From Longimicrobiales bacterium (GTDB lineage: Bacteria > Gemmatimonadota > Gemmatimonadetes > Longimicrobiales > Gaopeijiaceae), in NCBI GenBank assembly GCA_029245345.1, contig JAQWPM010000006.1:1-64000 (forward strand): a stretch of DNA of 64,000 bases. Direction: 5' to 3'. The position numbers were made by a program, and so were the translations under genes. Shown one piece after another: positions 29,702 to 61,641 of this stretch. The notes beneath the pieces were generated by a model. That model saw only the letters and a list, made by a program, of their open reading frames with translations, did not search any database and was not told the DNA's origin. How positions within the stretch are numbered: position 1 is the stretch's first letter; each line of letters begins with the position of its first letter.

Positions 29702-29774
29702 CGCAGACTGCGAACAGCTGAATGGCGTGGTGCCAGTGGCTGTAGCCCTCCACCACTCAAGCTAGGCCGGCGCC

Positions 29775-40836: not shown

Positions 40837-41942
40837 GAACGTGCTCCGGTCTCGGACGGGGCGTGCGTGCGTGTACCCATGCCGAGGGGCCAGCCCAGGA
40901 TCACGTCGTCCGCGTCCTCTGCGAAATCTCGAGTCTTGAGCCAGGAGGTGAGTCCTAACCGAGAAGACGTGGAGCCAGTGGTCAAAACAGTGCCCGGAAC
41001 CTGTTCTCTTTCTAAGATCAGGCGTACCGCGAAATCGAGATCGTCGCGAAGGTACCAACTCACCATGTCGGTCAGCGGGCCGAGGGAATCGCCTCCGGGA
41101 AGAAAGCGCTCGAAGGCATCGAAATCGACCGGGCCCACGACGATTTCGATCATCCCTTGTTGATCCCAGACGCGACCGCCCATGACCGCGTCTACGCCTA
41201 GGACGCAACGTCCGTCACGCATGCCGAGCACCGTTCCTTGGTCCTCGCCAAGCTCGTGCCAGCGCCCGATGAACTCCCGGACCCTTATGCGCCCAGTAGG
41301 GCGGCCTGGATCGGGTTGAAGTGCGTGGGCGAAATAGTCCGACAGAAGTCCTTCCAAGCCGACAGCGGTGCGTCGGCTATGGGAGAGCGTGCCGGCGTAA
41401 AAGAGAAGTGAGCGATCCGCGACGTCCATTCGATCGCGCAGCGCATCGGCTCCCATTCCGATCAGGGATAGCCCCATATCGGCTACCCGACTCTTCTCCG
41501 GAGACTGGATCCTCATTCCGACTCGATGCTTCTCCTTTGCTCTGTACAGGAGGGAAACGAGCCGGTGATTGAAGATGTCTAGGAAGTCTCGTGTGGCGGT
41601 GTCTCCAGCCGCGAGCCGATCCAACAACAGCTCGGTGAAGGGCTGGGGGAGGGGCCCCTGACTCCCTGCCAATCCAAGAAAGCTGACGAGGACCTCTGCG
41701 GGCCCATCGTCTTCTCCATCTGGGAGGCTGACGTCAAGAACTTCACTCGCAGGGAAGGAGAGGGTCGGGTCTGAACGGAAGCGGATCGCCTCAAGTGAGG
41801 GGTCAGCACCGGTACCGATCGGTACAGCCTCCGGCCGCATCGTCTCCAGGAGGCGAACCGCCTGGAAAAAATCAAATGCGTAACCTGCCTGCTGTAGTTC
41901 TTCGACTACAGGAAGTCTTTGGTTCCTGCCAGAGCGGGCCAT
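40833..41942 (-). CDS. tssG: T6SS baseplate protein TssG
   Basis: The 369-residue product is a typical TssG (VasB/ImpH): an N-terminal helical segment (VVEELQQAGYAFDFFQAVRLLE), a phage-baseplate-like body with FRSDPTLSFPASEV, VSFLGLAGSQGPLPQPFTELLLDRL and the DFLDIFNHRLVSLLYRAKEKHR motif near residues 115-140. TssG joins TssE, TssF and TssK in the baseplate wedge. Its start overlaps the tssF end by 37 bases; ATG 41942 is preferred to a TTG three codons upstream. Confidence 0.95.
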   Translation of the reverse strand: MARSGRNQRLPVVEELQQAGYAFDFFQAVRLLETMRPEAVPIGTGADPSLEAIRFRSDPTLSFPASEVLDVSLPDGEDDGPAEVLVSFLGLAGSQGPLPQPFTELLLDRLAAGDTATRDFLDIFNHRLVSLLYRAKEKHRVGMRIQSPEKSRVADMGLSLIGMGADALRDRMDVADRSLLFYAGTLSHSRRTAVGLEGLLSDYFAHALQPDPGRPTGRIRVREFIGRWHELGEDQGTVLGMRDGRCVLGVDAVMGGRVWDQQGMIEIVVGPVDFDAFERFLPGGDSLGPLTDMVSWYLRDDLDFAVRLILEREQVPGTVLTTGSTSSRLGLTSWLKTRDFAEDADDVILGWPLGMGTRTHAPSETGARS

Positions 41943-43726
41943 TGTTTCCAAACTTCACCAGGTCGCCGGCTGTCCTCAGCCACGGTGCGGGTAAAGGAAT
42001 TTAGTGAAGCGTACAATGCTATGAAATGCCGGAGCACTGATGCAAATAGGAATGGACTGGAGCCTGGAAATGCCGAAGGATCTAACACCAGACGGACTTC
42101 AGTGCCTCGAGCGAAGCCACGCCAGGCCTCGTGGCCGAGTCGCTCGACGATCGGTCGGGTGTGCATCTCGCGAATCCCGTTGATCTGTCTATGCGCTGAC
42201 TGGCTGTCGTACTGAGCGTAAAGGAGAAGGATCTCTTTGAGTGCGGCCAGCCCGTCGGGACCACCCTTTAGTGACAGGTGGTTTAGCGACAAGTGTGAGA
42301 CGAGCCGCCATCGGGTTTCGCCACCTAGGGATGGGTCGAGCTGCGGCGTCGGTTTGTTCATGGCCACGATGGACTGGACAGGTGCCCCTGTCTCCGTGGT
42401 CAACTTTGCGCCGGCAGGGAGTTGCTCTGCCAGTCGGCGATTGGTGCATAGAGTGTGGGCGTAAATCGTATCGCCTGCCGGAACCCGAGCATCGAATTCC
42501 AGATCCACGAGCGAGAGCATCATCTGGGTACCCGGCATGTCCCGCCGGCCTGTTCCCGTCCTACGTACGACCCAGAAGGCCTCAGTCTTTTCGTGAGCGG
42601 CGTGATGATCGAACGAGTAATAGGGATGCAGCCGTCGGGTCTCATCTGAGTTGTCTTCAGAGGATGACACGGACACCACCGTGTGAATCTCCGTACTCCC
42701 CTCCCGATGGGCATCGGGGACGAGCCTGTACTCGGACTTCTTCTGATCGAGCCGAATGGGTTCGCTGGTGTGCGGGAACAGATTCGCCGCTGGGGTACAA
42801 CCCAACGCGAACGTGTCCGTATCCACCATTAGGTCGGTTTCGGGCGCCCGACTGAGGAGAAGCAGTATGTCGAAGTGATTCCCCTTCAACGCTGGTCTGA
42901 GTCCCTTCACATCCATGAAGAGATACTTACGAGGGAAGGTGAAGTACTCCTGCAGTAGCCTGTATCCCGGGTGGGCATGGCGAGGGTAGGGCAGTACCGC
43001 TTCGTCTTCCCCGTACCCGACTTCCTGCACGTCATCCGGCCCGAGTTCGATGGGGTGTGTTGCACCCTCCGGTAACACGACTACCCCGGCCAAGTTGGCG
43101 AAGACGAGTTCGTGGAGGTCGGTGGCCGCCTTCAGGTCACGATTGAAGTGGAAGCGGAGGGAGTCGAGCTCGAGATCTTTGAGGGGGACGCCGTCCGCCT
43201 CGACTCGGATCCGGATCACCTTCACCACATCACCCCGACCATCCAGGAAATCATACTGATTGGTCGATTCCATTCCTCCGTAGCTGACCTCTACAGGCCA
43301 GAGCGTGACGGGATAACACGTGCGGAAACGGGCCGATAGGCCACCGGCTCCGTGCGCTTCGGCATACATGGAGGTGTGGCGGGCGACTTCGTACCCGGTG
43401 GTCAAGATCCCTTGTTCTGGGTCGGGCTTGAACTGCACCACCGTCATCGATGGTACCGGAGCCAGATAGTGGGGATAGAGCAGCTCTAGCAGCGCGGTTG
43501 TGATCTCAGGGAACTGCTGATCGAGGTTGCGTTGGACGCGGGCCGTTAGGAAGGCGAAAGCCTCCAAGAGCCGTTCGACATGAGGATCAGGACTTTCGTC
43601 CGGACTCAGTTCTAGGCGGTTGGCGACCTTGGGGTATTGGTCAGCAAAGTCCGCCCCTTTCTCACGCAGGTAGGTGAGTTCGGCCTGATAGTACTGTAGG
43701 AGTTCTTCCCGGGCGTCGTCTGCCAT
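41906..43726 (-). CDS. tssF: T6SS baseplate protein TssF
   Basis: The 606-residue product begins LLQYYQAELTYLREKGADFADQYPKVANRLEL, the signature TssF N-terminus, and continues with PDPHVERLLEAFAFLTARVQRNLD and ELLYPHYLAPVPSM. The length fits the family. TssF forms the baseplate wedge with TssG. It lies just after tssE (3-bp gap) in the same leftward operon. Confidence 0.96.
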   Translation of the reverse strand: MADDAREELLQYYQAELTYLREKGADFADQYPKVANRLELSPDESPDPHVERLLEAFAFLTARVQRNLDQQFPEITTALLELLYPHYLAPVPSMTVVQFKPDPEQGILTTGYEVARHTSMYAEAHGAGGLSARFRTCYPVTLWPVEVSYGGMESTNQYDFLDGRGDVVKVIRIRVEADGVPLKDLELDSLRFHFNRDLKAATDLHELVFANLAGVVVLPEGATHPIELGPDDVQEVGYGEDEAVLPYPRHAHPGYRLLQEYFTFPRKYLFMDVKGLRPALKGNHFDILLLLSRAPETDLMVDTDTFALGCTPAANLFPHTSEPIRLDQKKSEYRLVPDAHREGSTEIHTVVSVSSSEDNSDETRRLHPYYSFDHHAAHEKTEAFWVVRRTGTGRRDMPGTQMMLSLVDLEFDARVPAGDTIYAHTLCTNRRLAEQLPAGAKLTTETGAPVQSIVAMNKPTPQLDPSLGGETRWRLVSHLSLNHLSLKGGPDGLAALKEILLLYAQYDSQSAHRQINGIREMHTRPIVERLGHEAWRGFARGTEVRLVLDPSAFPGSSPFLFASVLRHFIALYASLNSFTRTVAEDSRRPGEVWKQWPALAGTKDFL

Positions 43727-43729
43727 GGC

Positions 43730-44203
43730 CTATCGTCGTGAGGCACGAGCTTCGAGTGCCAATGGAAAGGAGACAGGTTCGAGCAGCGTGCCGATGCGAA
43801 TAGTCCCTTCGATCCAGACTTGCAGTGACCGATTGTTCCCATCGGAGAGTTCAACGCTGACCTTCGGGTCTACCATACGGGGTTCGAAGGCGCGAATCGC
43901 AGCTTCGATGAGCCGGGAAAGTCGCAGGTGGGAGGGTGGTGAGCGCGTATACCACCCAGAGTAATCGGGGAGCCCCCAGTCCAACACTGTCCAGGCACGG
44001 CCTTCCAGCTCGCCAGGCTGGGTGGGGGAGCGAGTGTTGAGGAGTCGGCCGAGTTCCCTCTGGACCGACTCACGGACCCCGTTGGTGTCAAGGACCCGGA
44101 GAGGCTGCTGTTCGACCGGCTCGGTCGGATCAAAATCGACGAGTCGATCGAACAACAGCGCCCGGGCACCCTCGGTAGACTTAGAGTCGCGAGGCAAGGC
44201 CAA
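43730..44203 (-). CDS. tssE: T6SS baseplate protein TssE (gp25-like)
   Basis: The 157-residue product has the gp25/lysozyme-like baseplate domain with REELGRLLNTRSP-like positions (ESVQRELGRLLNTRS), VLDWGLPDYSGW, LIEAAIRAFEPRMVDPKV, matching the TssE family. It begins the sheath-baseplate contact. The gene sits 4 bp after hcp and 3 bp before tssF. Confidence 0.93.
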   Translation of the reverse strand: MALPRDSKSTEGARALLFDRLVDFDPTEPVEQQPLRVLDTNGVRESVQRELGRLLNTRSPTQPGELEGRAWTVLDWGLPDYSGWYTRSPPSHLRLSRLIEAAIRAFEPRMVDPKVSVELSDGNNRSLQVWIEGTIRIGTLLEPVSFPLALEARASRR

Positions 44204-44207
44204 GAGG

Positions 44208-44690
44208 TTATACGGCCTTGTTCAGGCTCACGTCCCACTTGGCAACCGCGTTTCCGCCTGCTCCACCCTCTTCCTTCTGGGCGAAATAGGTCCACTCGAT
44301 ACGCGCGTAGTTGATCGCGATCGATTCGGTCGGCTTACCGCCGCCGCCGCCGCCCACTGCGATGCTCGAGATGATGCAGTCTTCCATCTTGTACGTGAAC
44401 AGCTTCACCACAGCACCACTGTCGTTACGGGCAATGGTGATCAAAACCTCTTTGTACACTTTGGCTTCGTTACACCCCTGCAGCAGTGACGGGCTCGCCT
44501 TATCGACGTCCTTGGTCACGCTGAAGTCCTGGTGCATCGGACGGCCGGTGGTACGGTCCGTGTTCGAGACGTTGGCCGTCACGTGCTGCGCGATCCCATG
44601 GCTGTAACTAAACAGCTCCATGTGATCTTTATATCCGTTGAGTTGTGTCTGGCCCGGAACGTCCGTGACCTTCATGAGAACGATGTCCAT
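44208..44690 (-). CDS. hcp: T6SS tube protein Hcp (TssD)
   Basis: The 160-residue product is a typical Hcp: MDIVLMKVTDVPGQTQ, QHVTANVSNTDRTTGRPMHQDFSVTKDVDKASP and YKMEDCIISSIAV, followed by an internal GGGGGGKPTESIAINYARIEWTY. It forms hexameric rings that make the tube. Start ATG 44690 has AGGAGGG just upstream. A pair of hairpins in the tssC-hcp gap may keep its mRNA level high. No extended C-terminal effector domain is present. Confidence 0.96.
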   Translation of the reverse strand: MDIVLMKVTDVPGQTQLNGYKDHMELFSYSHGIAQHVTANVSNTDRTTGRPMHQDFSVTKDVDKASPSLLQGCNEAKVYKEVLITIARNDSGAVVKLFTYKMEDCIISSIAVGGGGGGKPTESIAINYARIEWTYFAQKEEGGAGGNAVAKWDVSLNKAV

Positions 44691-44722
44691 CAACCCTCCT
44701 CAGGGTATTTCGCTTTAGTAAA

Positions 44723-44790: not shown

Positions 44791-46275
44791 TCAGCCACCA
44801 GCTGGTGGCGGCAGCTCCGCGACGAGTCGCATCGAAGCCGTGAGTTCCTCAAGCTGGAAGTGCGGCTTGAGGTAGACGGTAGCCGCGTAGCTTCCCGGCT
44901 TACCTGCAATCTCGACCACATCTACACGTCCTTCACTGAGCGGGTAGGAGGCCTTCGCCGACTGCGGTGCATCATCGTTGATGAGCACATAGTCGGCGAT
45001 CCAACGGTTCAGGAACGTCTCGACATTCCCACGCGTCATGAAGCTTCCAACCTTATCACGCATTATTACCTTCAGATAATGTGCGAAGCGGGAGGCTGCC
45101 ATGACGTACGGAAGCTGTGCCGAGATACGCGCGTTCGCATTGGCCTGTGGCGTGTTGTACACCATTGGCTTCTGCGCCGATGCGCCACCGAAGAATGCCG
45201 CATAGTCGGTCCCCTGACAGTGACACAGTGAGATGAAGCCAAGGTCGTTCAGCTCTTTCTCACGACGATCAGTGATCGCGATTTCGGTCGGGCACTTCAG
45301 CGCGACGTCACCTTCGTCCGTCTTGAAGGTGTGCGCCGGCAGGCCTTCGACCATACCGCCACCTTCTACGCCACGGATTGCCGCTGTCCAGCCGTAAAGC
45401 GAGAAAGCGTTGGTGATCCGCTCACCGAGGGCCCATGCTGCGTTCCCCCAGAGGTACTTCTGGTGGTCCCGTCCATCGACTTCCTCGACGAAGTTGAAGC
45501 CGTCAACCGGCTTCGTGTCGGGGCCGTACGGAAGGCGCATGAGGATGTGCGGAAGCACGAGCGAGACGTATCGCGAATCCTCAGTTGCACGGAACGAGTT
45601 CCACTTGATCAACTCAGAGCTCTCGAAAACCTTCGCGAGATCGCGAGGTGCACCGAGACGGGTGTAGCTCTGGAGGTCGAACATCTTGGGGCTTGCCGCC
45701 GCAATCATCGGGGCATGGGCCGCCGCTGCTACGTTCGAGAGCTTCTCGAGTAGCGCGATGTCCTGTGGGTGACGACCGAACTCAAAGTCGGCCAAGAGGC
45801 AGCTGTACGGGTTACCACCGAAGGTGCCGTATTCCTCTTCGTAGAGGAGTTTGAACAGCCGACTTTGGTCGAACTCGACAGCCTTGTCGAGGTCGTCCTG
45901 AATTTCCTTCTGGCTGGCAGCCAAGACACGGATCTTCAGTCGTGCGCCCGTCTCGGAATTCGAGATCAAGTGCGACAGTCCGCGCCAGCTTCCTTCAAGT
46001 TCTTGGAAATCCGGACTGTGCATGATCTCGTTGAGCTGGTCGCTCAGGAGTTCATCAATTCGAGCAATGCGCTCGTTAATCATTGCTGCCGAGTCCGAAG
46101 ACACGGTGATCTCTTCCGAAAGAATCTGGTTGGCGAACTCACCGACCAAATTCTTTGCATGCTCGGCCTGGGCGTCGTCCTGCGCCATGTTGCCCTCGGA
46201 AATGATCCGGTCGAGGATACTCATGTCCTCGGTCGCAGCGCCCCCTCCTTCGGAGGCCGCTTGTTCTTTTGCCAT
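44791..46275 (-). CDS. tssC: T6SS sheath large subunit TssC (VipB)
   Basis: The 494-residue product has a short polar N-terminus (MAKEQAASEGGG), an Asp/Glu-rich segment and the helical part AKNLVGEFANQILSEEITVS, then IDELLSDQLNEIMHSPDFQELEGSWRGLSHLI, the family's hallmark. Later motifs are YSCLLADFEFG, NAAWALGERI, DRREKELNDLGFISLCHCQGTDYAAFFG and YRNWDYVLI-like NRWIADYVLINDDAP. It forms the contractile sheath with TssB. The start ATG 46275 has AGAGAGGG four bases upstream; the frame extends upstream into tssB but without a ribosome site. Bases 46003-46170 are partly duplicated inside tssM. Confidence 0.97.
   Translation of the reverse strand: MAKEQAASEGGGAATEDMSILDRIISEGNMAQDDAQAEHAKNLVGEFANQILSEEITVSSDSAAMINERIARIDELLSDQLNEIMHSPDFQELEGSWRGLSHLISNSETGARLKIRVLAASQKEIQDDLDKAVEFDQSRLFKLLYEEEYGTFGGNPYSCLLADFEFGRHPQDIALLEKLSNVAAAAHAPMIAAASPKMFDLQSYTRLGAPRDLAKVFESSELIKWNSFRATEDSRYVSLVLPHILMRLPYGPDTKPVDGFNFVEEVDGRDHQKYLWGNAAWALGERITNAFSLYGWTAAIRGVEGGGMVEGLPAHTFKTDEGDVALKCPTEIAITDRREKELNDLGFISLCHCQGTDYAAFFGGASAQKPMVYNTPQANANARISAQLPYVMAASRFAHYLKVIMRDKVGSFMTRGNVETFLNRWIADYVLINDDAPQSAKASYPLSEGRVDVVEIAGKPGSYAATVYLKPHFQLEELTASMRLVAELPPPAGG
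46003..46170 (-). repeat. tssC segment that is duplicated in tssM (donor copy)
   Basis: This block encodes TssC residues of about 37-92. It aligns without gaps to 51302-51469 at about 149 of 168 bases. The block here is part of the conserved TssC fold, so this copy is presumably the source. Confidence 0.9.
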
Positions 46276-46342: not shown

Positions 46343-46855
46343 TTACTCGGCGTCGTCCTCGGCCGGAGCCGTCGCTTCCTGGATCTCCTTGAGGCCATCC
46401 GTGTTCTCGACAATCTCGATCAGTAGGCGATCGAGGTCGTCGTTACCATCGAGCTTAGCGCGGAGGTCGCTCAGACGCTGACGCGCCTCGAACAGCTTCC
46501 GAAGTGGCTCGACCTGCTGAACTACGGATACCGGATCAAAGTCCTCCATCGACTCGAAATTCAGCTCGACGTTGAACTTGCTGTCTTCGTCGGTGAGCTG
46601 ATTGTCGACCTGGAACGCGAGACGCGGGCCGACTGACTTCATGACATCATTGAAGTTGTCACGGTCGACCTGGACGAACTTGCGCTCTTTCATCGGAGCG
46701 GGTGCTTCGGCGGGCTTGCCTGCCAGATCAGAAATCACGCCCATGACGAAGGGGAGTTCCTTCTTCTGGATCGCGTCCCCGATCTCGACGTCGTACGTAA
46801 TCTGCACCCTGGGCGGGCGCACTCGGTCCAGCGTATGCTGCGTGCTTTCTGCCAT
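46343..46855 (-). CDS. tssB: T6SS sheath small subunit TssB (VipA)
   Basis: The 170-residue product shows VQITYDVEIGDAIQKKELPFVMGVISDLAG and MKERKFVQVDRDNFNDVMKSVGPRLAFQVDNQL, then LNFESMEDFDPVSVVQQVEPL, all matching TssB. It ends with a long helix that pairs with TssC in the sheath. It is 67 bp upstream of tssC. No separate promoter is clear. Confidence 0.97.
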   Translation of the reverse strand: MAESTQHTLDRVRPPRVQITYDVEIGDAIQKKELPFVMGVISDLAGKPAEAPAPMKERKFVQVDRDNFNDVMKSVGPRLAFQVDNQLTDEDSKFNVELNFESMEDFDPVSVVQQVEPLRKLFEARQRLSDLRAKLDGNDDLDRLLIEIVENTDGLKEIQEATAPAEDDAE

Positions 46856-48259: not shown

Positions 48260-51200
48260 TTATCGACCCGCGGGTGGGGGCGGGCGAGTCGGAAAACGAG
48301 GAAAGATGACGGTTCCGCCACCTGTTGAGGGAGTCAGTCCGAGTTGAATGAAAACGCTCGCGAGCCCATCAACCGGATCTGCTGTCTCAGACACCGCGTC
48401 CCGGGCCCTGGTGACGATTCTGGGATTGACCGTGGAACGGTCGACGATTGGATCGCCGGTCAGTGCCGCAGCGTCAGGACGGTGCTCCATGAGAAGCCTG
48501 AGCAGCGCCCACGGTCCAGCGTACCGCCACGTGACGGTTGCGTCGTCCACAGAGATTGCCTGACTCGCGGATTGACGAACAGGGCGCCGCGCAGACTCTG
48601 ACGCCCACGTCAGACTCAGCGCAACAACATCGCCCACTCGCCATGTGCTCTCTCCGACTCCGCCGGCGCCTTGGTAGGTCACCGCTTGGCCGGCTAGGCT
48701 CAAGCGCCATTCGACGATCTGGTCGGCTCGAAGCTCGGAATCCCGGTTCGTCCTCATTTGGGTTCGGACGTCCAGGGCGCCGGGGACTCCTTCTTCGTTC
48801 GGCAATACCACCGGACCGAGAAGTGCTCGGATCTCCACCATTTGGCGGAAGAAGTCGACGGGCACTACATCGTCCAGGAGAGTCTGCACAACCGTGATGG
48901 GGTCTCCGTCGAGCGGGGCAGTGACCTGGTCCCATAGTTCGAGGAACTCCAACACGGACTCGACGTCGGCATCCGGCGCATCCGGCCGCGTGTCCAGGTC
49001 GGCGAACGGGAATCGGCCAGCCAACCGTTCGCCGTGGAACTGGGCGAGCTGGTTGTACCCGCCTAAGAGAGCCATCCGGGCCAAGTCACGGCACCGGTCT
49101 GCGAGCGACGTTCTCAACTGACGCTCGACCGACCCGAAGTAGCTTTGGGATGGTGCTCCGCTCTCAGTCACACCGCCCGAGCCGCACTGAGACAGTGTGG
49201 CGATCCCCATGTCCTGTCGGACGAACTGCTCCATCGCGTCCAGCTCGTTCCCCGGGGCCTTGTTCTCGTGCTCGTCTAGGGTGCGCACAATGGTGCGCCA
49301 GCGCTGAATGAGGTTGTCCGTGCCAGGTGCGATTCGCCGGCCGTCGTAGCGGAGAAGCTCTGTAACGGGCGGGAGGGCGAGATATCCCAACACGGGTGCG
49401 GCATACTCAGCTAGCATCTTCAGTGACTGTCGCTGCTGGGCCAGATAGGCTTCGAGCCCGGCCGCGTCGGGTACTCCGAAACCGACCAGAGAGGCAGGCC
49501 GGGTACCACGCCACACAGCGAGGTTTCCGTTCACCGGCTCATATAGACGGGCGCTGCTCAGAAGCATGTCGATTTCGCTGAGCAGGTCGGAAGCTTCGAG
49601 GATGATGGCCTCGGCCACGGCGGTCCCGGCAGGAGTCCCACCGACTTGCTCGTCCATCTCCAACATTCCGACGAGTCTGCGCGCGGCCTGATCGAATCCC
49701 GCCAGGCGAGCCTGGAGTTCCTCCTCCTGCCACGCCCGGCCTTCGCCTCCGACACTCACCTCGAACGTCATCGCCCGGCTTAAGGACCACCGCACGCGCT
49801 CCTCGAGGGAGCGACCCGCCACGCCTAGGGCCAATCCGCGGAGCTCCGGCGGGACTCCTGTGGAGGTATCCCCGCGAGCGGCCTGGTATTCAGCGAAGTA
49901 GCCGAGAGCTTCTTCCAGGGGACCCATGTTCCAGGTCGGCCGGCCGCCCAGCATGGGTTGCGGAGGGCCGCCCACGCCGCCTATAGGAGCCATGAAGCCA
50001 CGGTTGAGTAGGCTGGCCAGCGCTATGCGGAGCGCACCGAGGCGCGGGGCCAGGTCGATGCGAGTGCCACTGCTTGGCGCTACCCGACCGGTGGAGTCCG
50101 CCTGGACTGGCAGTGATCTCGACAGGAGGGCCAGCCCGTTAGAAAGCTCTGTTAGGTGCCGCCTCCGTGTCGCATCGAAGGCCTGCGTGAAGAGGGTTTG
50201 GAAAGCGGCTCGGTCCATCAGGTCTGGATTCACCGGAATAGAATCGAGCATGACCTGGAGCACAGGGACGAGGGGAGCTTCGGTATCGAACCACATGCTG
50301 TCCGAAGACACCAGAAGGTCATGGACCTGCCCGACATCTTGCCAAAGTTGGCGTAGGTCGGACGCGGTGAATGCCGGATTGGACGCTCCAGCGAAAAAAC
50401 TTTGTTTGAGCCCCTCCACCGCATTAAGGAGGCGCTGGTAAAAACGTTCCAGCAAGAAGGTCGCGGATTCGGTTGCTCTGACTTCGAAGCCCGCCCAATC
50501 AGCTGTGCCGACCGGGAGTACCGATGCACCTGCTAGGCCGGCGCGATAGAATTCGTCGTTTTCGAAGAAGTCCTGCGGTAGCTGGGTTTCGTAGTACCAG
50601 AAGAAGAGATCTGCGAAGACCTGGAGTTCTCCCGCCCCGAGGGCCGAAAGCCGATTGAAGCGGTCGGCGTTCTCCAGGAATTGCCCGATTTCGCTCAGGT
50701 ATCCGACCAGCACTTCGTACTCCTGGAACCGATTGGTCATTCGGACCAACTGATCCGAATCATCCAGTGGGATCCGGCCACCCAGTGTCAATGCCCACTG
50801 TTTGTCGGTCATCGTGTCGGCCCACTCGGTGATGCCTGTTCGGAAGGTCGGCAAGATTACGTCTTGGAACCCCTCCGTCATGTTGTCCTGGATGTGCTGG
50901 TCCAGGTCGTCAAAAAACGAAGTCGGTAGGAAGACAGACCTGAATGGGCCAGCTTCCAAGCTCGACATTTGCTCAAGAAGGGAGCGCACGGCTCTCTCTT
51001 CAGCGGCCTGCGACAATCCTGCTTGATCCTCGCCGAAGTGTTCGGTGATGCTGGTCCCGACCGAGTCGAGCAACTCGATCAGTGGGCCAGCGTCGCGTCG
51101 GAGTGACGCCTGCCCGAAGAACATCCCAGGAAGGCCCACCAGCACGAGAAGAGCTGCCGCGACCTGGATCCAGCGAATGGCTCGGTTTCGGTCTAGGAAT

Positions 51201-52513
51201 CCCTTGGCAAAGCCTCGTGCCAATCCTCGTTCTGGGAAGATCTTCTGAGTGAAGAGGCGGCTGGAGAAAACCGATTCCTCGTGATGCTCTTCCACAACTG
51301 ATTTGAAGTCCTGACGATGCATGATCTCGTTGAGCTGATCGCTCAGGAGTTCATCCATTTGAGCAATGCGCTCGTTGGACATTGCTGCCGAGTCCGAAGA
51401 CACGGTGGTCTCTTCCGAAAGAACTTGGTTGTCGAACTCCCCGGCCAAATTCTTTGGATGCTCGGCCTCAACCTGTTCGCCCTTCTCGACCATCCCGGAG
51501 AAGTAGACACCTCGGAGGAAGAAGCTCTCGTGGTAGGCGCTGTCCTCGAATACCTCTGCGAGGATGGTGCGCGTAGCCCAGCGGAGTTCGTCGGCGACGT
51601 CCGGAAAGCGGAAGACGGCGTCGGCGTCTGCGAGTTGGGTGCGGGAAGCGAGGACTTCAGTGGACCGGTCTCTCAGGGAATCGGCGATCCCGTCGAGCGC
51701 CTCGTCCACCCACTCCTCCCTGAACGAAGCTTCCAGCGAGTATGGACTCGACCAGCCGAAGATGTCTTGATGGAAACGGCGAGGGACGGCGTTGACGAAA
51801 CTGGAGAATCCGGGGAGGCGATCGGCCTGCGTCAGGAGGACGTAGACGGGAAATCGGACCCCCAGTTCGGCCTGAGCTTCGCGCAGACGGCGGAACAGGG
51901 CTCCGCCGATCTCACGGAGTTCTTCTTTTGAACGGCCGCGCCAGGATCGAAGGTCTGCTGCGGATAGCGTCAGGACCACGCCGTCGATAGGCCGTTCGGG
52001 GCGGTGTCGTTTTAGGAGCGCCAGCAGCCGTTGCCAGCCCCTCTCGTCTGAAGTCAGGTCCTTCTTGAGGACCACGCTCCCGGTGACGTCGAGCACCACG
52101 CCGCCGTCAAAGAAGTGCCACCCTACCGTGTGGCTGGCCGCCGAAAGGTCTGCATTGCCCTGGACTCGACGCGGCAGGGGGATCTGCCGAAGGAAGGTGC
52201 TGTTCCCACTGCCGGTGGGCCCCAGCATCATGTACCAGGGGATGCGATAGCGGTAGCCGGCGCCGGAGGTGACGCCGCGAAGCGTTTTCATGCCACGTCG
52301 GAACGACAGCTCCAAGTCAGCGGCCTGCGTCATGGACGCAATCGGAGCAGGCATCTCCTCGGGAGCCTTAACTGTCTTGGATTTCTCGTCCGGCTTTTCT
52401 CGCGAGCGCCTGAGCACGATCACGATGAACACCACGACCGCGATCACCGTGATGATGAGCACGGCCAGTACGGTCCTGAAGTGCTCGGTCAGGAAGTTCA
52501 GGATCTCGGTCAC
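48260..52513 (-). CDS. tssM: T6SS inner-membrane protein TssM with a TssC-like insertion and altered Walker A
   Basis: The 1417-residue product has an N-terminal helix (TVLAVLIITVIAVVVFIVIVL), a cytoplasmic NTPase-like domain with MLGPTGSGNSTFLRQIPLP at about residue 97, and a second helix near RWIQVAAALLVLVGLPGMFFG (about residue 430). A long periplasmic region extends to the end. The Walker A lysine is Asn (N104), and the switch-like D-T-A-G-x-x of TssM is DVTGSV, so nucleotide hydrolysis is probably lost. Residues of about 348-404 copy TssC 37-92 and sit in the linker after FLRGVYF. The start overlaps tssL by 4 bp. TssM connects TssL and TssJ across the envelope. Confidence 0.95.
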   Translation of the reverse strand: MTEILNFLTEHFRTVLAVLIITVIAVVVFIVIVLRRSREKPDEKSKTVKAPEEMPAPIASMTQAADLELSFRRGMKTLRGVTSGAGYRYRIPWYMMLGPTGSGNSTFLRQIPLPRRVQGNADLSAASHTVGWHFFDGGVVLDVTGSVVLKKDLTSDERGWQRLLALLKRHRPERPIDGVVLTLSAADLRSWRGRSKEELREIGGALFRRLREAQAELGVRFPVYVLLTQADRLPGFSSFVNAVPRRFHQDIFGWSSPYSLEASFREEWVDEALDGIADSLRDRSTEVLASRTQLADADAVFRFPDVADELRWATRTILAEVFEDSAYHESFFLRGVYFSGMVEKGEQVEAEHPKNLAGEFDNQVLSEETTVSSDSAAMSNERIAQMDELLSDQLNEIMHRQDFKSVVEEHHEESVFSSRLFTQKIFPERGLARGFAKGFLDRNRAIRWIQVAAALLVLVGLPGMFFGQASLRRDAGPLIELLDSVGTSITEHFGEDQAGLSQAAEERAVRSLLEQMSSLEAGPFRSVFLPTSFFDDLDQHIQDNMTEGFQDVILPTFRTGITEWADTMTDKQWALTLGGRIPLDDSDQLVRMTNRFQEYEVLVGYLSEIGQFLENADRFNRLSALGAGELQVFADLFFWYYETQLPQDFFENDEFYRAGLAGASVLPVGTADWAGFEVRATESATFLLERFYQRLLNAVEGLKQSFFAGASNPAFTASDLRQLWQDVGQVHDLLVSSDSMWFDTEAPLVPVLQVMLDSIPVNPDLMDRAAFQTLFTQAFDATRRRHLTELSNGLALLSRSLPVQADSTGRVAPSSGTRIDLAPRLGALRIALASLLNRGFMAPIGGVGGPPQPMLGGRPTWNMGPLEEALGYFAEYQAARGDTSTGVPPELRGLALGVAGRSLEERVRWSLSRAMTFEVSVGGEGRAWQEEELQARLAGFDQAARRLVGMLEMDEQVGGTPAGTAVAEAIILEASDLLSEIDMLLSSARLYEPVNGNLAVWRGTRPASLVGFGVPDAAGLEAYLAQQRQSLKMLAEYAAPVLGYLALPPVTELLRYDGRRIAPGTDNLIQRWRTIVRTLDEHENKAPGNELDAMEQFVRQDMGIATLSQCGSGGVTESGAPSQSYFGSVERQLRTSLADRCRDLARMALLGGYNQLAQFHGERLAGRFPFADLDTRPDAPDADVESVLEFLELWDQVTAPLDGDPITVVQTLLDDVVPVDFFRQMVEIRALLGPVVLPNEEGVPGALDVRTQMRTNRDSELRADQIVEWRLSLAGQAVTYQGAGGVGESTWRVGDVVALSLTWASESARRPVRQSASQAISVDDATVTWRYAGPWALLRLLMEHRPDAAALTGDPIVDRSTVNPRIVTRARDAVSETADPVDGLASVFIQLGLTPSTGGGTVIFPRFPTRPPPPAGR
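51302..51469 (-). repeat. tssC-derived segment inside tssM (recipient copy)
   Basis: In tssM this block keeps the tssC frame and encodes AEHPKNLAGEFDNQVLSEE, then SSDSAAM, and DELLSDQLNEIMH. About 149 of 168 bases match 46003-46170, with no indel. About 13 of 56 codons encode a different residue, so most base changes are non-synonymous. The flanks (GVYFSGMVEKGEQ before, FSSRLFTQKIFPERGLARGF after) are ordinary TssM. Confidence 0.9.
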
Positions 52514-53298
52514 CGGCCAGCCTCCGCCGTCGCGCGGGCTACATCGGCACTTACATCACGAATTCCCTGCGAGACGTCAGTCCAAACAAAATGGGAGAGG
52601 ACGAGATAGCTCCCGATCATGACAAGAAGGACCGCGACCCAGCGCCGCACCGGAGGCAGCCGCAGATTTTCGGTCGAAACGAGCGTGCTTTCCGTCGGTT
52701 GCGAAAACAGCGGATCGATATCGTCTGCGAGCGTTGTTCGGCCCCGGGTGACGAAGTTGAGGAGGCGGCGGCGAAGGCTTTGCAGGCCGCCGGAGTCGCG
52801 TGTGCCTCGATACTTGCCCAAAAAGCCGAGAGAGAGCGCGGAGAGGTAGATCCAAGCCATGTCCCAGTTGGCGTCGTCGCCCTCGGCGAGGAGTGCCTCC
52901 GCTCGTTCTAACACCTGTTCGCCTGCCACGTGGGAGCCGAACATGTGCGTCTCAAGGAGCTCGCGGGACCATGCCTCGCGTCCTTCCCACTCCATGTTTA
53001 CGAGGACCTCGTCAGCGAGTGAGGCCATGACGTACTGGGCCTCGTCCATCCAATCGATACCTTCTGGCCCGAGCGAACGTGTCAGCTCCCGAGCCTGTCC
53101 CTTGAGGAAGTCATGCAGGTGGGTACGCACGCGAGCCACAGCCTTGGAATGGGCGGCCGTGCGGTCTTCCGAGGCTTCACCGGCTCGTTTGGTGAAGTGC
53201 CACGGATCCGCCTCGATATCCGCCCCAATTTCAGAGAGGCTGGTGTAAAAATCCCGGAATGCGCTCGCCAGGATCCGATGCGACCACCCGTCGGTCAT
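52510..53298 (-). CDS. tssL: T6SS inner-membrane protein TssL (DotU-like)
   Basis: The 262-residue product has a cytoplasmic DotU domain with DEAQYVMASLADEVLVNMEWEGREAW and LETHMFGSHVAGEQVLERAEALL, both family signatures, and one C-terminal helix (VAVLLVMIGSYLVLSHFVW). It stops about 25 residues later, so it lacks the OmpA-like peptidoglycan-binding tail found in some TssL forms. It overlaps tssK and tssM by 4 bp each. Confidence 0.95.
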   Translation of the reverse strand: MTDGWSHRILASAFRDFYTSLSEIGADIEADPWHFTKRAGEASEDRTAAHSKAVARVRTHLHDFLKGQARELTRSLGPEGIDWMDEAQYVMASLADEVLVNMEWEGREAWSRELLETHMFGSHVAGEQVLERAEALLAEGDDANWDMAWIYLSALSLGFLGKYRGTRDSGGLQSLRRRLLNFVTRGRTTLADDIDPLFSQPTESTLVSTENLRLPPVRRWVAVLLVMIGSYLVLSHFVWTDVSQGIRDVSADVARATAEAGR

Positions 53299-54626
53299 AC
53301 GTTGACCTGATCCGGGGCATAGAAGACGATTTCGGCCGGCCGCTCACGTCCTTGTCGTTCAGCCGGATGCGAGAGCGTGAGGACTTCTTCATCTGTTACG
53401 AACTCCGGATCGAGTTCAATTCTGAAGAGGAGGACCCCGCTACTTGGTACCAAGCCCAGATCGTCGTCTGAATCGATCCGTGTGCGCTTCGCGCCTCGGA
53501 TGCGCCTGTCCTCGATGGACTTAATTCGGTCAGCGGTGCCGACGCGTGCTTCCATTACCCAGGACAGCACGCTGCTCTCTGTCGCGCCAGGCGCTCCGAC
53601 GGCCCCGATGACGGCGCTCGTGCCGCTCCATGCCGAGCGCAGACGCAAGCGGAAGGCATCGCGGTCGAATTGGAACGCGATCACCTCGTAAGCCTGCTCG
53701 ACGCTGTTCACCATTCGGTAGCAAAACCCGAGGACTTCGTCGAAAGAGTCGCGCAGATTGTTGTGGTCGTAGCGCTTGAACCCTGTCGGCAGCAGCCCGG
53801 GCGTGAGCCCGGCCATGTGCCCCGCCAGGGCGGTTAGCGCCTGATAGATGTGGAACGGATGTGTGCCGCGGACGGCAAGCAGTGCCTCAAGGGGTGGCAG
53901 GCCTACGAATAGCTTCTCGACCATACCTTGGAGGTCGCGGATCTTGTCTCCGCGGACCATCGCTGAGGACGCCCTGACCTTATCTGAGAGAAAGCGTGAC
54001 TTCTCGCGCACGGCTCGTGCCAGCTCGGAGACAGCCGTGCCCGGGTATCCGACCGCATCTGCGGCGAGAACCGGGGGGGCGAAATCAGTTGCCTCGAAGT
54101 TGCCGCGTTCGAGGATGATTTTCGCTATCGGGAAGCTCGTGTACTTCTCGGCAGGCGTCTCAGTGACGAGAAGCTGAGCCGCGGGCTGAAGGCGAGGGAT
54201 GCGAACTGCGCCCTCGCCCAGGTGCTCGTCAGCTACAGGGTAACCCTCGACCGATGCGTAGCGGGGTACACTCCCTGCCACCGGCTCAGTTGGCCCACGA
54301 CGTGCGGGAACGGCCAGATGGATGGTTAGCTCACCACGACCGCCTTGGTTTTCCACGAACGAGTTGAGGTCGACCTGGAGTGGCGTGTTGACGAGCACGC
54401 CGTCCGGAAGGAGGGCCTCGATCTGAGTGATTTGAAACACACCGCTGGCAAGTGCCCGGTCGTCGTATTTCAGCGTCCGGACTCCCCAATGAAACGGAGC
54501 CGCGATACCCATGTGGTAGTGGACCAGTCCTTCGCTGCGGAGGTCCGCTTGTTGGAAATGCTGGGGTGCCAGGAGCATGCCTTCGTGCCACTGGATCGCG
54601 TCGGGCAGATCTTTTCCGTCAATCAT
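53295..54626 (-). CDS. tssK: T6SS baseplate-membrane adaptor TssK
   Basis: The 443-residue product starts with the family signature AIQWHEGMLLAPQHFQQADLRSEGLVHYHM, followed by LPDGVLVN. It also has FLSDKVRASS and a HPFHIYQALTALAGHMAGL stretch near residue 260, and ends with a beta-rich C-terminal domain (LTLSHPAERQGRERPAEIVFY). TssK links the baseplate to TssL/TssM and the length is typical. Confidence 0.96.
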   Translation of the reverse strand: MIDGKDLPDAIQWHEGMLLAPQHFQQADLRSEGLVHYHMGIAAPFHWGVRTLKYDDRALASGVFQITQIEALLPDGVLVNTPLQVDLNSFVENQGGRGELTIHLAVPARRGPTEPVAGSVPRYASVEGYPVADEHLGEGAVRIPRLQPAAQLLVTETPAEKYTSFPIAKIILERGNFEATDFAPPVLAADAVGYPGTAVSELARAVREKSRFLSDKVRASSAMVRGDKIRDLQGMVEKLFVGLPPLEALLAVRGTHPFHIYQALTALAGHMAGLTPGLLPTGFKRYDHNNLRDSFDEVLGFCYRMVNSVEQAYEVIAFQFDRDAFRLRLRSAWSGTSAVIGAVGAPGATESSVLSWVMEARVGTADRIKSIEDRRIRGAKRTRIDSDDDLGLVPSSGVLLFRIELDPEFVTDEEVLTLSHPAERQGRERPAEIVFYAPDQVNV

Positions 54627-56148: not shown

Positions 56149-56150
56149 CT

Positions 56151-56948
56151 CTACTCTCCCCTGAATCGCCCGAAGAAGCCGGAGAAGGTGGCCTTTTCAG
56201 CCTTGCCATCCTCTTCTTCCACCCCTTCTGAGCCTCCCTGCAACCCGCTCTCTTCTTCCGCGAGCACTTCCGGTGCCACAACAGCAACTTGCGGGGCGAT
56301 CACTTGCTGATGGATCACCTCGCCCTCGGGATCGTAAATGACAGTCTCACCTTCGATCTCACCATCCACGTATTCCGTTTTCTGTTGGACGGTGCCGTCG
56401 GAGTAGTAGTCGAATGTGACCCCGTTCAACTTCCCGCCCGTGTACAGGGCCCGGCGAGTGACTTCGCCGGCTGGCCCGTACCACAAGGACTCGCCCTCCT
56501 GGGCACCTTCCACGAATTCCATCTTCGATATCAGACGTCCTGACGTATCGAACGTCTTGATCGGTCCGTGCTGTACCCCCGACTTCATCATTACGGTCAT
56601 CGACAGAGCACCGGCGTCGAAAATCTTCACTTCGCCGACCACTGCACCATTGATGTAGTTCGCCTGCTGGGCCGGGCTTCCGGTCTCGTCGAAGATCTCT
56701 GCAAGGCCATGCAGCGCCCCGTCCGCGAAATGCGAACGGCTCTCTAGCGATCCGTCCTCTCGGTAGAGTGTTACCTGGCCGTGAATCTGCTCGCCGCGAA
56801 AGTGTGAGACCTCTTTAATCTGGCCCGCTTCATAGTACTCGGTCACCTCTCGGGCAGTATCCTCAACGGGCTCCCCTCCGTCTAACGGGGGAGTGTCTCC
56901 CTCGAGCACTGTTGGTGCGGCTTCCTTGGTGCCTGGTTCAGTCGTCAT
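56151..56948 (-). CDS. MORN-repeat (YwqK-like) protein
   Basis: The 265-residue product has eight or so MORN_2-type repeats with recurring pattern Y-x-x-G-x-x-x-x-x-x-x-x-G-x-x-x-G-x-x-x-x-Y (for example YYEAGQIKEVSHFRGEQIHGQVTLYREDG) between residues 35 and 215, flanked by acidic low-complexity ends. YwqK-family proteins are often immunity-type proteins near toxin genes; the partner toxin is not seen here. Start ATG 56948 overlaps the vgrG stop by one base (TGATG); the earlier TTG is possible. Its job may be adaptor or immunity (inference). Confidence 0.78.
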   Translation of the reverse strand: MTTEPGTKEAAPTVLEGDTPPLDGGEPVEDTAREVTEYYEAGQIKEVSHFRGEQIHGQVTLYREDGSLESRSHFADGALHGLAEIFDETGSPAQQANYINGAVVGEVKIFDAGALSMTVMMKSGVQHGPIKTFDTSGRLISKMEFVEGAQEGESLWYGPAGEVTRRALYTGGKLNGVTFDYYSDGTVQQKTEYVDGEIEGETVIYDPEGEVIHQQVIAPQVAVVAPEVLAEEESGLQGGSEGVEEEDGKAEKATFSGFFGRFRGE

Positions 56949-58954
56949 CAATTGATCTTCACCATGCCACCTTTCAGGGTCAGCATGCCTCCGCCATCGA
57001 CTGTCTGGGTCGCGCTTCCCTTATTGGTGACCGAAACGCCACCCTCGTTGGTTACGCCGATTGATCCCTTGTTAGTCAGAGAGGTGCCTGCCTCATTGGT
57101 CAGGGCCGTCCCTGACTTGTTGGTGAGCGCGGTGCCGGCCTGGTTCGTCAAAGCGGTACCGGCCTGGTTCGTCAAAGCGGTGCCGGCCTTGTTGGTCAAC
57201 GCCTGCCCGGCCTCGGTATCTAGACCCTGGGCCGCTTTTACCTTCACGGCCTTCTCGGAATCGATCGTGATGCTGCCGCCAGCTTCAATCGTTAGGTCGC
57301 CGGTGACCTTGAGGGTGAAGTCACCCTTTACTTCATGAACGAAGTTGGCCTGGCTGGTGTGCTTCTCGTCGTCTTTGATATCGAGGGTGCGCTTACCCTT
57401 GGTGACGGTGTGGGTCTCGTCTCCCTCGGTGACCGTCACTGTCCGGTTCTTCGTGATGGTCGTCGTCGAGTCGTTGAGGACCTCGGTGGTCATGTCCTTC
57501 TGAGCGTGCATGTAGATCTCTTCGGAGTCCTTCTTGTCTTCGAAGCGGATCTCGTTGAATCCCTCGCCCCCTTTGGAGGTGTTGCTCTTCACGGTCGACT
57601 GCGTCTGGTTAGCCGGGAGAGCGTAGGGGACCGTTTGCTCAGCGTTGTAGACGGATCCCGTGACCAGAGGTCGATCCGGATCTCCGTCTAGGAATGAGAC
57701 CACGACTTCCTGCCCGATTCGGGGAAGGAAGAAGGCGCCCCATTTTTTTCCCGCCCAGCCATGAGTCACTCGGATCCAGCAAGAGCTCTTCTCGTCTCCC
57801 TCGCTGACCCGATCCCAGTGGAAGAGGACCTTGATGCGGCCGAATTTGTCGGTCCAGATTTCCTCGCCCTTCTTGCCCACCACTTTGGCGGTCTGCGTGC
57901 CGGCAATCAGTGGCCGCGCCGTGTGCATGGGGGGGTGGAACGTCACATCGGCGGGAAAAGCGACGAAGCTGTTCCGGTAGTGCGACTGCGTCAGCTGGTG
58001 TTCGACGGACCGAAGCGCCCAGGCTTTGTTGACGTCTTTCCGGGGGTGATCGGCGAGTGTGAATTTGTAACCGGCGCAGAAGCTCGGACTGAACGAGGAG
58101 CCGCTTAGCAGGTCCGCCGCGCCTTCGAGTGCTCCCAAGCGCACCTTGGCCAGCGCCGTGCCATCGGCCTTCTTCGTGAAACGTCCGGGGTAGTCGTAGC
58201 GGGCGAGCTTTCCGCTGCCCGCCTTGGTCTCCAGGTCGGTGGAGGGTGCTTCGAAGGAGTAGTCATCGAGGGCGTAGGTGCCGGTCGTGACGTTGTTCTC
58301 GATGTCACACGCCCACACGACATCGATGTCGTTGTCCTCGGTCGCGGTGCCGCGGAAGCGCATCTTGGCGAGTTCCGGACAGTCCTTGGCCGCAGAGGCG
58401 TCGTCGGCCATGACCAAGGTGTGTTTCGCGTCCGTGTGCTCGAAGAAGTAGTGAATCCCGTCTTCTTCCATGAGCCGCGAGACGAAGTCAAAGGCCGTTT
58501 CACGGTACTGAACGCAGTATTCTCTCGGCTGGTAGGTCGCTTTTAGCGTGAACTTGAAGTCGTTGTATCCCAGGTCTTTGAAGACCTTCTCAATGATCTC
58601 CTGGGTCTTCATTTCCTGGTAGATGCCACAGTCTGACGTCTGGGTCAGCATCCATAGCCAGGGGCGCAGCTCGGCGACATATCGGGTCACGCCGGGGTCG
58701 GTAGCGCCCTGACGTAGGCGGGTGATCATTCCATGGAAGTGCCGCTTCCCTCCATCAGGAAAGTCCACGCTCGCCGAAGCCGGTTTGCCGACCACCTTAC
58801 TGAAGTCGACGGCGTCGTCGTCGGATTCCAACTCTAGGTCGAAACGAAACAAGCCGGACTGGCGCTCCTCTCCCCATAGCTCGCGCAGGCGGAAGGCATC
58901 CTTCCCAGCCCCCGTGGTCACAGTGGCCCAGAGATTCGCCTGATCCATACTCAT
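56948..58954 (-). CDS. vgrG: T6SS spike protein VgrG (TssI)
   Basis: The 668-residue product has the gp27-like half (FRLRELWGEERQSGLFRFDLELESDD, LWMLTQTSDCGIYQEMKTQEIIEKVF, YCVQYRETAFDFVSRLMEEDGIHYFFEH) and the gp5/OB-fold part (EEIWTDKFGRIKVLFHWDR, CWIRVTHGWAGKKWGAFFLPRIGQEVVVSFLDGDPDRPLVTGSVYN). A C-terminal beta-helix ends in about eight 8-residue TNxAGTAL-like repeats and KGGMVKIN. No toxin domain follows, so effectors must bind to it or to the PAAR-like cap. The start overlaps the clpV stop by 4 bp. Confidence 0.97.
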   Translation of the reverse strand: MSMDQANLWATVTTGAGKDAFRLRELWGEERQSGLFRFDLELESDDDAVDFSKVVGKPASASVDFPDGGKRHFHGMITRLRQGATDPGVTRYVAELRPWLWMLTQTSDCGIYQEMKTQEIIEKVFKDLGYNDFKFTLKATYQPREYCVQYRETAFDFVSRLMEEDGIHYFFEHTDAKHTLVMADDASAAKDCPELAKMRFRGTATEDNDIDVVWACDIENNVTTGTYALDDYSFEAPSTDLETKAGSGKLARYDYPGRFTKKADGTALAKVRLGALEGAADLLSGSSFSPSFCAGYKFTLADHPRKDVNKAWALRSVEHQLTQSHYRNSFVAFPADVTFHPPMHTARPLIAGTQTAKVVGKKGEEIWTDKFGRIKVLFHWDRVSEGDEKSSCWIRVTHGWAGKKWGAFFLPRIGQEVVVSFLDGDPDRPLVTGSVYNAEQTVPYALPANQTQSTVKSNTSKGGEGFNEIRFEDKKDSEEIYMHAQKDMTTEVLNDSTTTITKNRTVTVTEGDETHTVTKGKRTLDIKDDEKHTSQANFVHEVKGDFTLKVTGDLTIEAGGSITIDSEKAVKVKAAQGLDTEAGQALTNKAGTALTNQAGTALTNQAGTALTNKSGTALTNEAGTSLTNKGSIGVTNEGGVSVTNKGSATQTVDGGGMLTLKGGMVKIN
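57005..57196 (-). repeat. 24-bp tandem coding repeat in vgrG C-terminus
   Basis: Eight 24-bp units encode TNKAGTAL, two TNQAGTAL, TNKSGTAL, TNEAGTSL and three diverged units. Two adjacent units are almost identical in DNA. The 8-residue period suits a triangular beta-helix like the end of the gp5/VgrG spike. Variation in copy number between strains would change spike length. Confidence 0.85.
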
Positions 58955-61641
58955 TGGACGGCTTGTTCTGGCGGACTGACTTCGTAGTCGAAGCCGCCAT
59001 TCTTACCCAGCTTCACATGGATTTGGCCGACTGGCTCTTCGTCCGCCATGAACTCGAGAAGCTTTGTGGACAGTTCCGGAAGCATGGTGTCCGAGAGGAT
59101 GAAGTCGATGTTGCGCGCCCCGGAATCGACCTCGGTACAGCGATCGGAAATCGCCTGGATGACCTCATCGTCGTATGTGAGGTCGGTCATGTGTTTCTGA
59201 AAGATGCGCCGTTGGATTTCGGCCATCTTCAAGCCGATGATGTCTTGGATTTCGGCATCCCGCAGTGGGTAAAATGGGACCATCGCGAGCCGGCCGAGGA
59301 AAGCCGCCGGGAAATGCTTTCGCAGTTCAGGGCGAAGCGTCTCAACGACCGCGGCTGCAGACGGGCGACTCTCAGATTGCCGGGCCAACTCGGAGATCGT
59401 ATCTCCGCCCACGTTCGACGTCAGGATGATCAGGGTCTGCTTGAAGTCGATCAGTTGCCCCTCCCCATCCTCCATCTGCCCGCGGTCGAAGACCTGATAG
59501 AAGAGCTCCATCACGTCCGGATGTGCCTTTTCCACCTCGTCCAGAAGGACTACGGAATAGGGCCGACGGCGCACGGCTTCGGTCAGTACCCCGCCTGTCC
59601 CGTAACCCACGTACCCTGGAGGGGCCCCCTTGAGCGAGGAGACCGTATGCGCCTCCTGATATTCCGACATGTTGACCACGATCATGTTGCGCTCACCACC
59701 GTAGAGTTCATCGGCGAGCGCTCGTGCCGTCTCGGTTTTTCCGACGCCGCTGGGGCCAGCCAACATGAAGACGCCCGTCGGCTTGTTGGGATCCTCCAAG
59801 CCGGCGCTGGACGTCCCGATGCGTCTGCAGAGTGTCTCGAGCGCCTCCGGCTGGCCGATGACGCGTTCCTCGAGCCTCTGGCGAAGGGAGAGCACTGTCT
59901 TGATCTCGTTGGCGACCATCTTGCCTGCGGGGATTCCGGTCCAGCCCGAAATCACTGAGGCGACAACCCCACCGTCCACGCAGGTCGGGACGAGAGCGTC
60001 TTCGCCCTGGAGATCGGCCAGCTCGGCTTCTAGCCGCATCAGCTCCGGCTGAAGTTCTTCCGGCTCACTAGGCTCGTTTTCATCGACACGGATCGTGCCA
60101 TCCAGGATGCCGTGGATCCGGTCGATCTTTTCGACGATCGCGACTTCGTCTTTCCAACGGTCTGTGAGCGTGGCTCTTCGGACCTTGGCCCGGGCGATAC
60201 CCTTGGTCAGGTGCCTCACTCGGTCGTCGTGGTCGCTACCCGACCGTTGTTCTCGCTCGAGTACCGAGAGCTCCACCTCGTATAGGGATGCCTCGCGAAC
60301 GGCGTCCTCGAGCTGGACTGGCTGGCTCCCCTTGCCGATGGCGACTCGTGCGCACGCTGTGTCCAGTACGCTGACCGCTTTGTCCGGGAGTTGCCGTCCC
60401 GTGATGTAGCGATGCGATAGCTCTACAGCTTCTCGGATCGCGTCGTCGAGGATCCGGACTCCATGATGCCGCTCCAGGTGCCCGACCATCCCGCGCAACA
60501 TGCGTTGGGCGGTTTCCTCGTCGGGCTCGTCTACCTTCACCACTTGGAAGCGACGAGCGAGCGCAGGATCGCGTTCGATGTACTTCTTATATTCGGACCA
60601 AGTCGTCGCGCCGATCGTGCGTAGTTCGCCGCGTGCGAGCGCGGGCTTTAGCAGATTGGCCGCATCGCCCTGACCCTCGCTGCCTCCTGCCCCGATGATC
60701 GTATGGGCCTCGTCGATGAACAGGATGATGGGGGTCACGGCCGAATTGACTTCTTCGATGACGTCTTTGAGCCGTTGCTCGAATTCACCCTTCACACCCG
60801 CGCCAGCCTGCAGCAGCCCTAGGTCCAGAGTGCGGACCGAAGCTTCCTGAAGTGGCTCGGGGACGTCCTTTGCGGCTACGCGCTTCGCAAAACCTTCTAC
60901 GATCGCGGTCTTTCCGACACCGGGCTCACCCGTCAGGATGGGATTGTTCTGGCGGCGGCGCATCAGGATGTCGATGATCTGCCGGATCTCTTCGTCACGC
61001 CCGGTGATGGGATCGATCCCACCAACCAGGGCGAGTGCGGTCAGGTCGACGGTGAACCGGTCGAGGGCCGACTGCCCTTTGGGCCCAGCGCTACTGTGAG
61101 GCGTCGGGGGTGTGGGACCGGCCATCGGGCCGCTCTTTTGATCCGGGCCTGTCTCCGTGCCGCCCCCTTCAGGGGAATGTGCACAGAGTTCCGGGAGCGC
61201 CTCCTCGACCGTCTCACGGTTGAGCCCGAATACGGACGGTGCCGTTTCTTCTAGGCTGCCCCGGACGGTGGGGTTTGACACCGCCGACATAAGGAGGGCA
61301 CCGGAGCGGACACGGTCATCGTGCAAGAGAAGCGATGAGACTCCCCAAGCAGACTCGAGCAGGCGCACCACATTTGGCGAAAATGCCGGTGTCCGAGAGT
61401 TGCCCCGCTTGAACCCGTCGATGCCGGCGGTGAGTTCAGCTTGGAGCGTGGCCTCTTCGATCCGGAAATGGCGCAGGATTACGCCAAAGTCCGTACCCGG
61501 TATGGCGAGGAGCGCCTTGAACAGGTGCTCGACCTCCACATTGTAGTTTGACTGCGCAACGCAGAGCTCAGCCGCTCCCTCCATGGCCTTTCGGCACAGT
61601 GGGTTCAGCTTCTCGATGAGCGCCTTCAGCTCGATTTTCAT
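58951..61641 (-). CDS. clpV: T6SS ATPase ClpV (TssH)
   Basis: The 896-residue product has an N-terminal ClpN-like helical domain ([22 protein letters not shown]-type start, [25 protein letters not shown]), AAA-1 ([14 protein letters not shown] and [14 protein letters not shown]), a middle coiled coil and AAA-2 ([46 protein letters not shown]). Both Walker motifs are intact. ClpV recycles the contracted sheath. It heads the first transcription unit; the divergent pair starting at 61938 shares its promoter region. Confidence 0.97.

What the first reader, a model, noticed from the sequence alone, without database searches (positions are those of the whole stretch)
51302..51469. A piece of the sheath gene tssC is embedded in frame inside tssM
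The 168 bp at 51302-51469 match 46003-46170 of tssC at about 89% without gaps, in the same orientation and frame. The copy places TssC residues of about 37-92, which lead into the TssC core, in the cytoplasmic linker of TssM after FLRGVYF. Most base differences change the residue (about 13 of 56 codons). The tssM copy has thus diverged at the protein level while tssM stays open for 1417 codons. A sheath-derived segment in the membrane complex could bind TssB or mimic the sheath, for example to dock or hold it before firing. The docking role is inference; the duplication itself is direct. I know of no described TssM with such a graft.
Basis: partly seen in the sequence, partly recalled or inferred. 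Interest (0 to 1): 0.85.

Follow-up and report, generated by a model that had tools for sequence, protein, structure and literature searches.

The report
Sheath-gene fragment drifting in tssM linker
A 56-codon piece of the type VI secretion sheath gene tssC really was copied, in frame, into the neighbouring membrane-complex gene tssM of one Longimicrobiales-type bacterium, but it landed in a linker whose length varies freely and has since changed like unconstrained sequence, so it looks like an evolutionary accident rather than a new sheath-docking device.

Summary
Window 51302-51469 (tssM codons 349-404) matches 46003-46170 (tssC codons 36-91) at 149/168 bases, without gaps and in the same frame; no other copy exists in the genome. 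Twelve of 56 residues differ, and 5 more codons differ silently. The segment sits exactly in the hypervariable acidic/Pro/Ala linker between TssM's cytoplasmic N-domain and the conserved 'LFTQKIFPERGLAR' stretch before the next transmembrane helix. Relatives have 26-60 residues there; this TssM has 85. None of 61 other TssM-like ORFs from several phyla matches TssC. The copy shares eight residues with its own tssC against the nearest relative's TssC, so it was made after those lineages split. Eleven of the twelve residue changes lie on the tssM copy; eight give residues seen in no TssC compared. Branch dN/dS of the copy is about 1.0, against 0.035 for tssC. AlphaFold gives low confidence over most of the segment. 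I conclude it is a genuine, lineage-specific segmental copy tolerated in a disordered linker and drifting near neutrality. TssB binding or sheath mimicry has no support, although retained helix-forming residues (377-399) leave a new role possible. A chimaeric assembly is unlikely, because no functional tssC allele would carry these changes.

The parts
51302..51469 (-). tssC-derived segment inside tssM (TssM residues 349-404)
46003..46170 (-). source segment in tssC (TssC residues 36-91)
48260..52513 (-). tssM (IcmF-related), 1417 codons, host of the segment
   Evidence: Pfam PF14331 E 1.6e-54; TIGR03348 E 1.4e-69, below its curated cut-off
44791..46275 (-). tssC, sheath large subunit, 494 aa from ATG 46275
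   Evidence: PF05943/PF18945, TIGR03355, TssC-type structures
51257..51493 (-). whole TssM linker between RGVYFSG and the LFTQKIFPERGLAR block; hypervariable in relatives
46343..46855 (-). tssB, sheath small subunit
   Evidence: PF05591
46968..48077 (-). tssA-like (ImpA_N), lies between tssB and tssM
40833..44693 (-). tssG, tssF, tssE, hcp: intact baseplate and tube genes of the same cluster
52510..54626 (-). tssL (DotU) and tssK
56948..61641 (-). vgrG and tssH/clpV

Best explanation
After this lineage split from its nearest sequenced T6SS relative, a 168-bp piece of tssC was copied about 5.3 kb away, in frame, into the part of tssM that encodes a flexible cytoplasmic linker, replacing or extending the linker (shown by sequence). 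The copying mechanism (template switch or error-prone repair) is inferred. Because that linker tolerates almost any length and sequence, the insertion was harmless. Since then the segment has changed at the rate expected without selection on its residues, losing TssC-specific hydrophobics and becoming more polar, and is kept open only because the rest of tssM must be read through it. It most likely works as a passive spacer, not as a sheath mimic.
For: The linker is hypervariable and the segment is absent in relatives: G072 has a short acidic/Pro stretch there, and inter-motif lengths are 26-60 against 85. No other TssM-like ORF among 61 matches TssC. In a 394-genome scan of the class, the strong hits to the segment elsewhere are ~500-aa TssC frames, and no other TssM shows the segment. 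Eight residues are shared with own tssC against G072 TssC, and 11 of 12 residue changes fall on the tssM copy. Branch omega is 0.99-1.0; omega = 0.035 (the tssC value) is rejected with 2dlnL 27-29. Eight of 12 changed residues are seen in 0 of 22 TssC rows. GRAVY falls from -0.33 to -0.86 (p 0.008 against random mutations, a post-hoc test). AlphaFold: 346-376 and 401-410 have pLDDT below 50; with TssC rows added, block means stay at 46-68. The rest of the T6SS cluster is present and open.
Against: Only 56 codons and 17 changed codons, so the omega estimate is wide (about 0.25 to 3 with a clock; no upper bound without one) and cannot exclude a mix of constrained and free sites. The helix-forming stretch (residues 376-400) is predicted helical in both models with middling confidence. 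The fall in hydropathy could reflect selection for a soluble linker rather than neutrality. No sister strain carrying the T6SS was available: the one same-genus genome had no match to TssC or TssM.
Confidence: 0.75

Rival explanations
1. The segment is a functional sheath mimic: its TssC-derived helices bind TssB or the sheath base and help dock or hold the sheath at the membrane complex.
For: It derives from TssC and keeps 44 of 56 residues, including a predicted helix at 376-400. TssM's cytoplasmic loop is already a docking surface for baseplate parts: TssG binds it in EAEC (PMC4604203).
Against: Omega is about 1. TssC-conserved residues are lost, with A-to-P and A-to-D changes and I-to-T/S/M changes at positions that are hydrophobic in every TssC compared. 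It lacks the LExxWRGL continuation. Confidence of the segment model is low even with TssC rows. No recurrence in other TssM. Residues that contact TssB were not mapped here.
Confidence: 0.07
2. The segment has acquired a new, sequence-relaxed role (adaptive linker lengthening, or a helical spacer that changes how far the N-domain stands from the membrane), unrelated to sheath binding.
For: This linker is longer than in the six relatives measured (85 against 26-60). The loss of hydrophobicity is more than expected from random changes. Helix 376-400 is predicted even without TssC rows. Omega above 1 is not excluded.
Against: Linker length varies widely without known consequence. The hydropathy test was chosen after seeing the data. 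Nothing distinguishes it from tolerated drift.
Confidence: 0.14
3. The segment is an assembly chimaera, or tssM is joined to a tssC fragment of another strain in the metagenome.
For: G072 and most relatives are metagenome bins, and the genome carries 3.7% estimated contamination. Read depth could not be examined.
Against: The insert is in frame, at the codon positions of the linker, with both tssM flanks orthologous to G072. A tssC allele from another strain would differ mainly at silent sites, whereas these changes include residues found in no TssC. At 89% identity it is not a misplaced copy of its own tssC.
Confidence: 0.04

Closest known systems
TssM / IcmF family of T6SS membrane-complex proteins (PF14331, TIGR03348)
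   Same: N-terminal transmembrane helices, G-domain-like cytoplasmic domain, conserved FLRGVYF and KIFPERGLAR blocks, same gene order as G072
   Different: carries a 56-residue tssC-derived insertion in the linker; P-loop lysine replaced by Asn (GPTGSGNST)
TssC / VipB sheath large subunit, N-terminal region (PF05943, TIGR03355)
   Same: the segment is homologous to TssC residues 36-91, 79% identical at protein level
   Different: only a fragment, evolving without TssC constraint and lacking the LExxWRGL continuation and the whole sheath core
Small lineage-specific linker motifs in TssM, e.g. the Acinetobacter C-terminal GS-linker (PMC10564176)
   Same: a lineage-specific short change in a TssM linker
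   Different: the GS-linker is conserved in most Acinetobacter genomes and needed for function; the present segment is known from one genome, is not conserved, and is of TssC origin

Membership tests
TssM (IcmF) | IcmF-related N-terminal domain | tested here: met
   PF14331 E 1.6e-54, 185 bits against cut-off 25
TssM (IcmF) | equivalog-level score to TIGR03348 | tested here: inconclusive
   235 bits, E 1.4e-69, below the curated cut-off of 388; only residues 10-475 align
TssM (IcmF) | encoded with the other T6SS core genes | tested here: met
   tssA, B, C, E, F, G, H, K, L, hcp and vgrG in the same cluster
TssM (IcmF) | Walker A lysine in the N-domain | tested here: not met
   GPTGSGNST here, GPVGSGTSS in G072, GK(S/T) in the other relatives aligned. 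This is a variable feature of some TssM (own knowledge), so it does not bar membership
TssC N-terminal segment as a working sheath part | sequence ancestry from TssC | tested here: met
   89% DNA identity to tssC; TIGR03355 matches TssM residues 347-406
TssC N-terminal segment as a working sheath part | purifying selection as in TssC | tested here: not met
   omega 1.0 against 0.035, 2dlnL 27-29
TssC N-terminal segment as a working sheath part | binding to TssB | not testable with these tools
   no two-chain prediction or assay available; conserved TssC positions are altered

The most novel reading that the evidence does not exclude
A T6SS membrane-complex protein has captured a helical piece of the sheath protein and now uses it as a contact between membrane complex and sheath or TssB, evolving quickly because the role is new.
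Probability: 0.06. Interest if true: 0.75.

Novelty: new variant of a known kind. Interest (0 to 1): 0.27.

Why it matters
It is a clean, datable example of one machine gene donating an in-frame piece to its neighbour, and it marks the TssM linker as a site that accepts foreign sequence. If the graft proved to bind the sheath, it would be a direct route by which a membrane complex gained a new contact; present evidence points instead to tolerated drift.

Tried and rejected
A direct genome-contig scan with TssM alone found nothing; an alignment-based scan found 31 loci, including G072 as Longimicrobiales MAG PL25a_bin.64. A first branch model converged badly and was replaced; one search ended in an error after its first two results. 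I considered gene conversion between the copies: the longest identical run is ordinary for 19 differences in 168. G350 TssM aligned across the whole linker but does not match TssC or the segment. Papers on TssM with a TssC-derived segment: none found in titles or abstracts. An earlier count said 9 of 12 changed residues are unseen in TssC; the correct count is 8.

Full report
Observation. The 168 bases at 51302-51469 on the minus strand are tssM codons 349-404. They align without gaps to 46003-46170, tssC codons 36-91, at 149/168 identity. The whole own genome (3.79 Mb, 30 contigs) holds just these two places. Of 56 codons, 39 are identical, 12 differ in residue and 5 differ silently. The similarity begins and ends abruptly. 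A TssC family model and a solved TssC-type chain (9n4v) both recognise the TssM segment on their own. Chance is excluded (E 6e-57).

Where it sits. TssM was compared with relatives from the same family and order. The nearest, G072 (42% identical; Longimicrobiales MAG PL25a_bin.64, JANQLR010000409.1), has tssM, tssB and tssC in the same order, and its TssM aligns to ours on both sides of the segment. At the site it has only a short acidic/proline stretch. Measured between the conserved RG(V/I)(Y/F)..(T/S)G motif and the conserved K(I/V)F.E..L.R block, six relatives have 26-60 residues and this protein has 85. The segment therefore fills a linker that is variable in every TssM examined. Of 61 distinct TssM-like ORFs (some partial) collected from Gemmatimonadota, Alphaproteobacteria, Acidobacteriota, Nitrospina-type and other bacteria, none matches any of 28 TssC proteins; only the window TssM does. 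A scan of 394 genomes of the class gave the same picture. The only same-genus genome held has no match to TssC.

History. Eight residues of the segment agree with its own TssC and differ from G072 TssC (K354, N355, N362, S366, S375, A376, E381, D392), so the copy was made after the split from G072. Eleven of 12 residue differences are best placed on the tssM copy; one (V364) could be a change in tssC.

Selection. tssC between this genome and G072 evolves with omega 0.035 (silent sites are near saturation, so this is rough). On a three-sequence tree the tssM copy has omega about 1.0. Omega of 0.035 fits far worse (2dlnL 29 with a clock, 27 without), 0.2 is worse by 6.7, and values up to about 3 are acceptable with a clock. 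Eight of the 12 new residues occur in none of 22 aligned TssC rows. They include A40P, V44A, A48D, I56T, I66S and I73M in TssC numbering, at positions that are hydrophobic or small in the TssC rows. Mean hydropathy drops from -0.33 to -0.86, beyond 99% of random mutation sets with the same number of changes; this test was chosen after seeing the data. Changes are spread evenly over the segment (six per half), so no sub-part is visibly protected.

Structure. AlphaFold on TssM 1-480 with TssM relatives gives a confident N-domain, pLDDT below 50 for 346-376 and 401-410, and a helix at 376-400 of middling confidence. Giving the program TssC rows for the segment yields weak helices (351-368, 377-399, 401-409) with block means of 46-68. 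No contact with TssB could be predicted, because only single chains can be folded here.

Mechanism. Shown: a genuine duplication, its place, its age relative to G072, its lack of TssC-type constraint, and the presence of the surrounding T6SS genes. Inferred: that it arose by an ectopic copy event over 5.3 kb, that it was tolerated because the linker is flexible, and that it now acts as a passive spacer. In known systems the TssM cytoplasmic loop contacts the baseplate protein TssG (PMC4604203), so a contact role for inserted sequence is possible in principle. Nothing here points to one, and loss of TssC-conserved residues speaks against TssB binding.

Artefact. A chimaeric assembly would have to join a foreign tssC allele in frame at both ends of a linker. 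Real tssC alleles differ mainly at silent sites and keep the residues lost here, so this is unlikely; read data were not available.

Verdict. This is an unusual but small evolutionary event in an otherwise standard T6SS.

Noticed in passing
window 29769-29891 and 31028-31142; own genome contigs C8, C22, C24: A dispersed 110-125 nt repeat (15 matches) with strong hairpin folding and ends like TCTAAC...GTTAGA, as in integron attC sites. One copy on C24 (235280-235403) lies about 0.8 kb from an integron-integrase-like gene (233583-234508) that is split over two frames. It looks like a chromosomal integron whose cassette array reaches this window.
   Followed up: partly
window 11689-11797 and 27849-27957: A two-copy, 109-nt, 85% identical intergenic repeat 16 kb apart, found nowhere else in the genome; no strong fold.
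   Followed up: partly
TssM residues 98-106, window 52196-52222: The Walker A motif lacks its lysine (GPTGSGNST); G072 has GPVGSGTSS, while the other relatives aligned keep GK(S/T).
   Followed up: no
window 55765-56951: A DUF4280 (PAAR-like) protein next to vgrG, plus a protein with MORN-like repeats (the latter judged by eye only).
   Followed up: no
window 54670-55125: A 151-aa lipoprotein-like ORF between tssK and a SPOR-domain protein, with no Pfam match; a possible divergent TssJ.
   Followed up: no
contig ends L060, L065, L072, L075, L076 of the own genome: A shared repeat of about 100-320 nt at the ends of several contigs, probably a mobile or other repeated element that breaks the assembly.
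   Followed up: no
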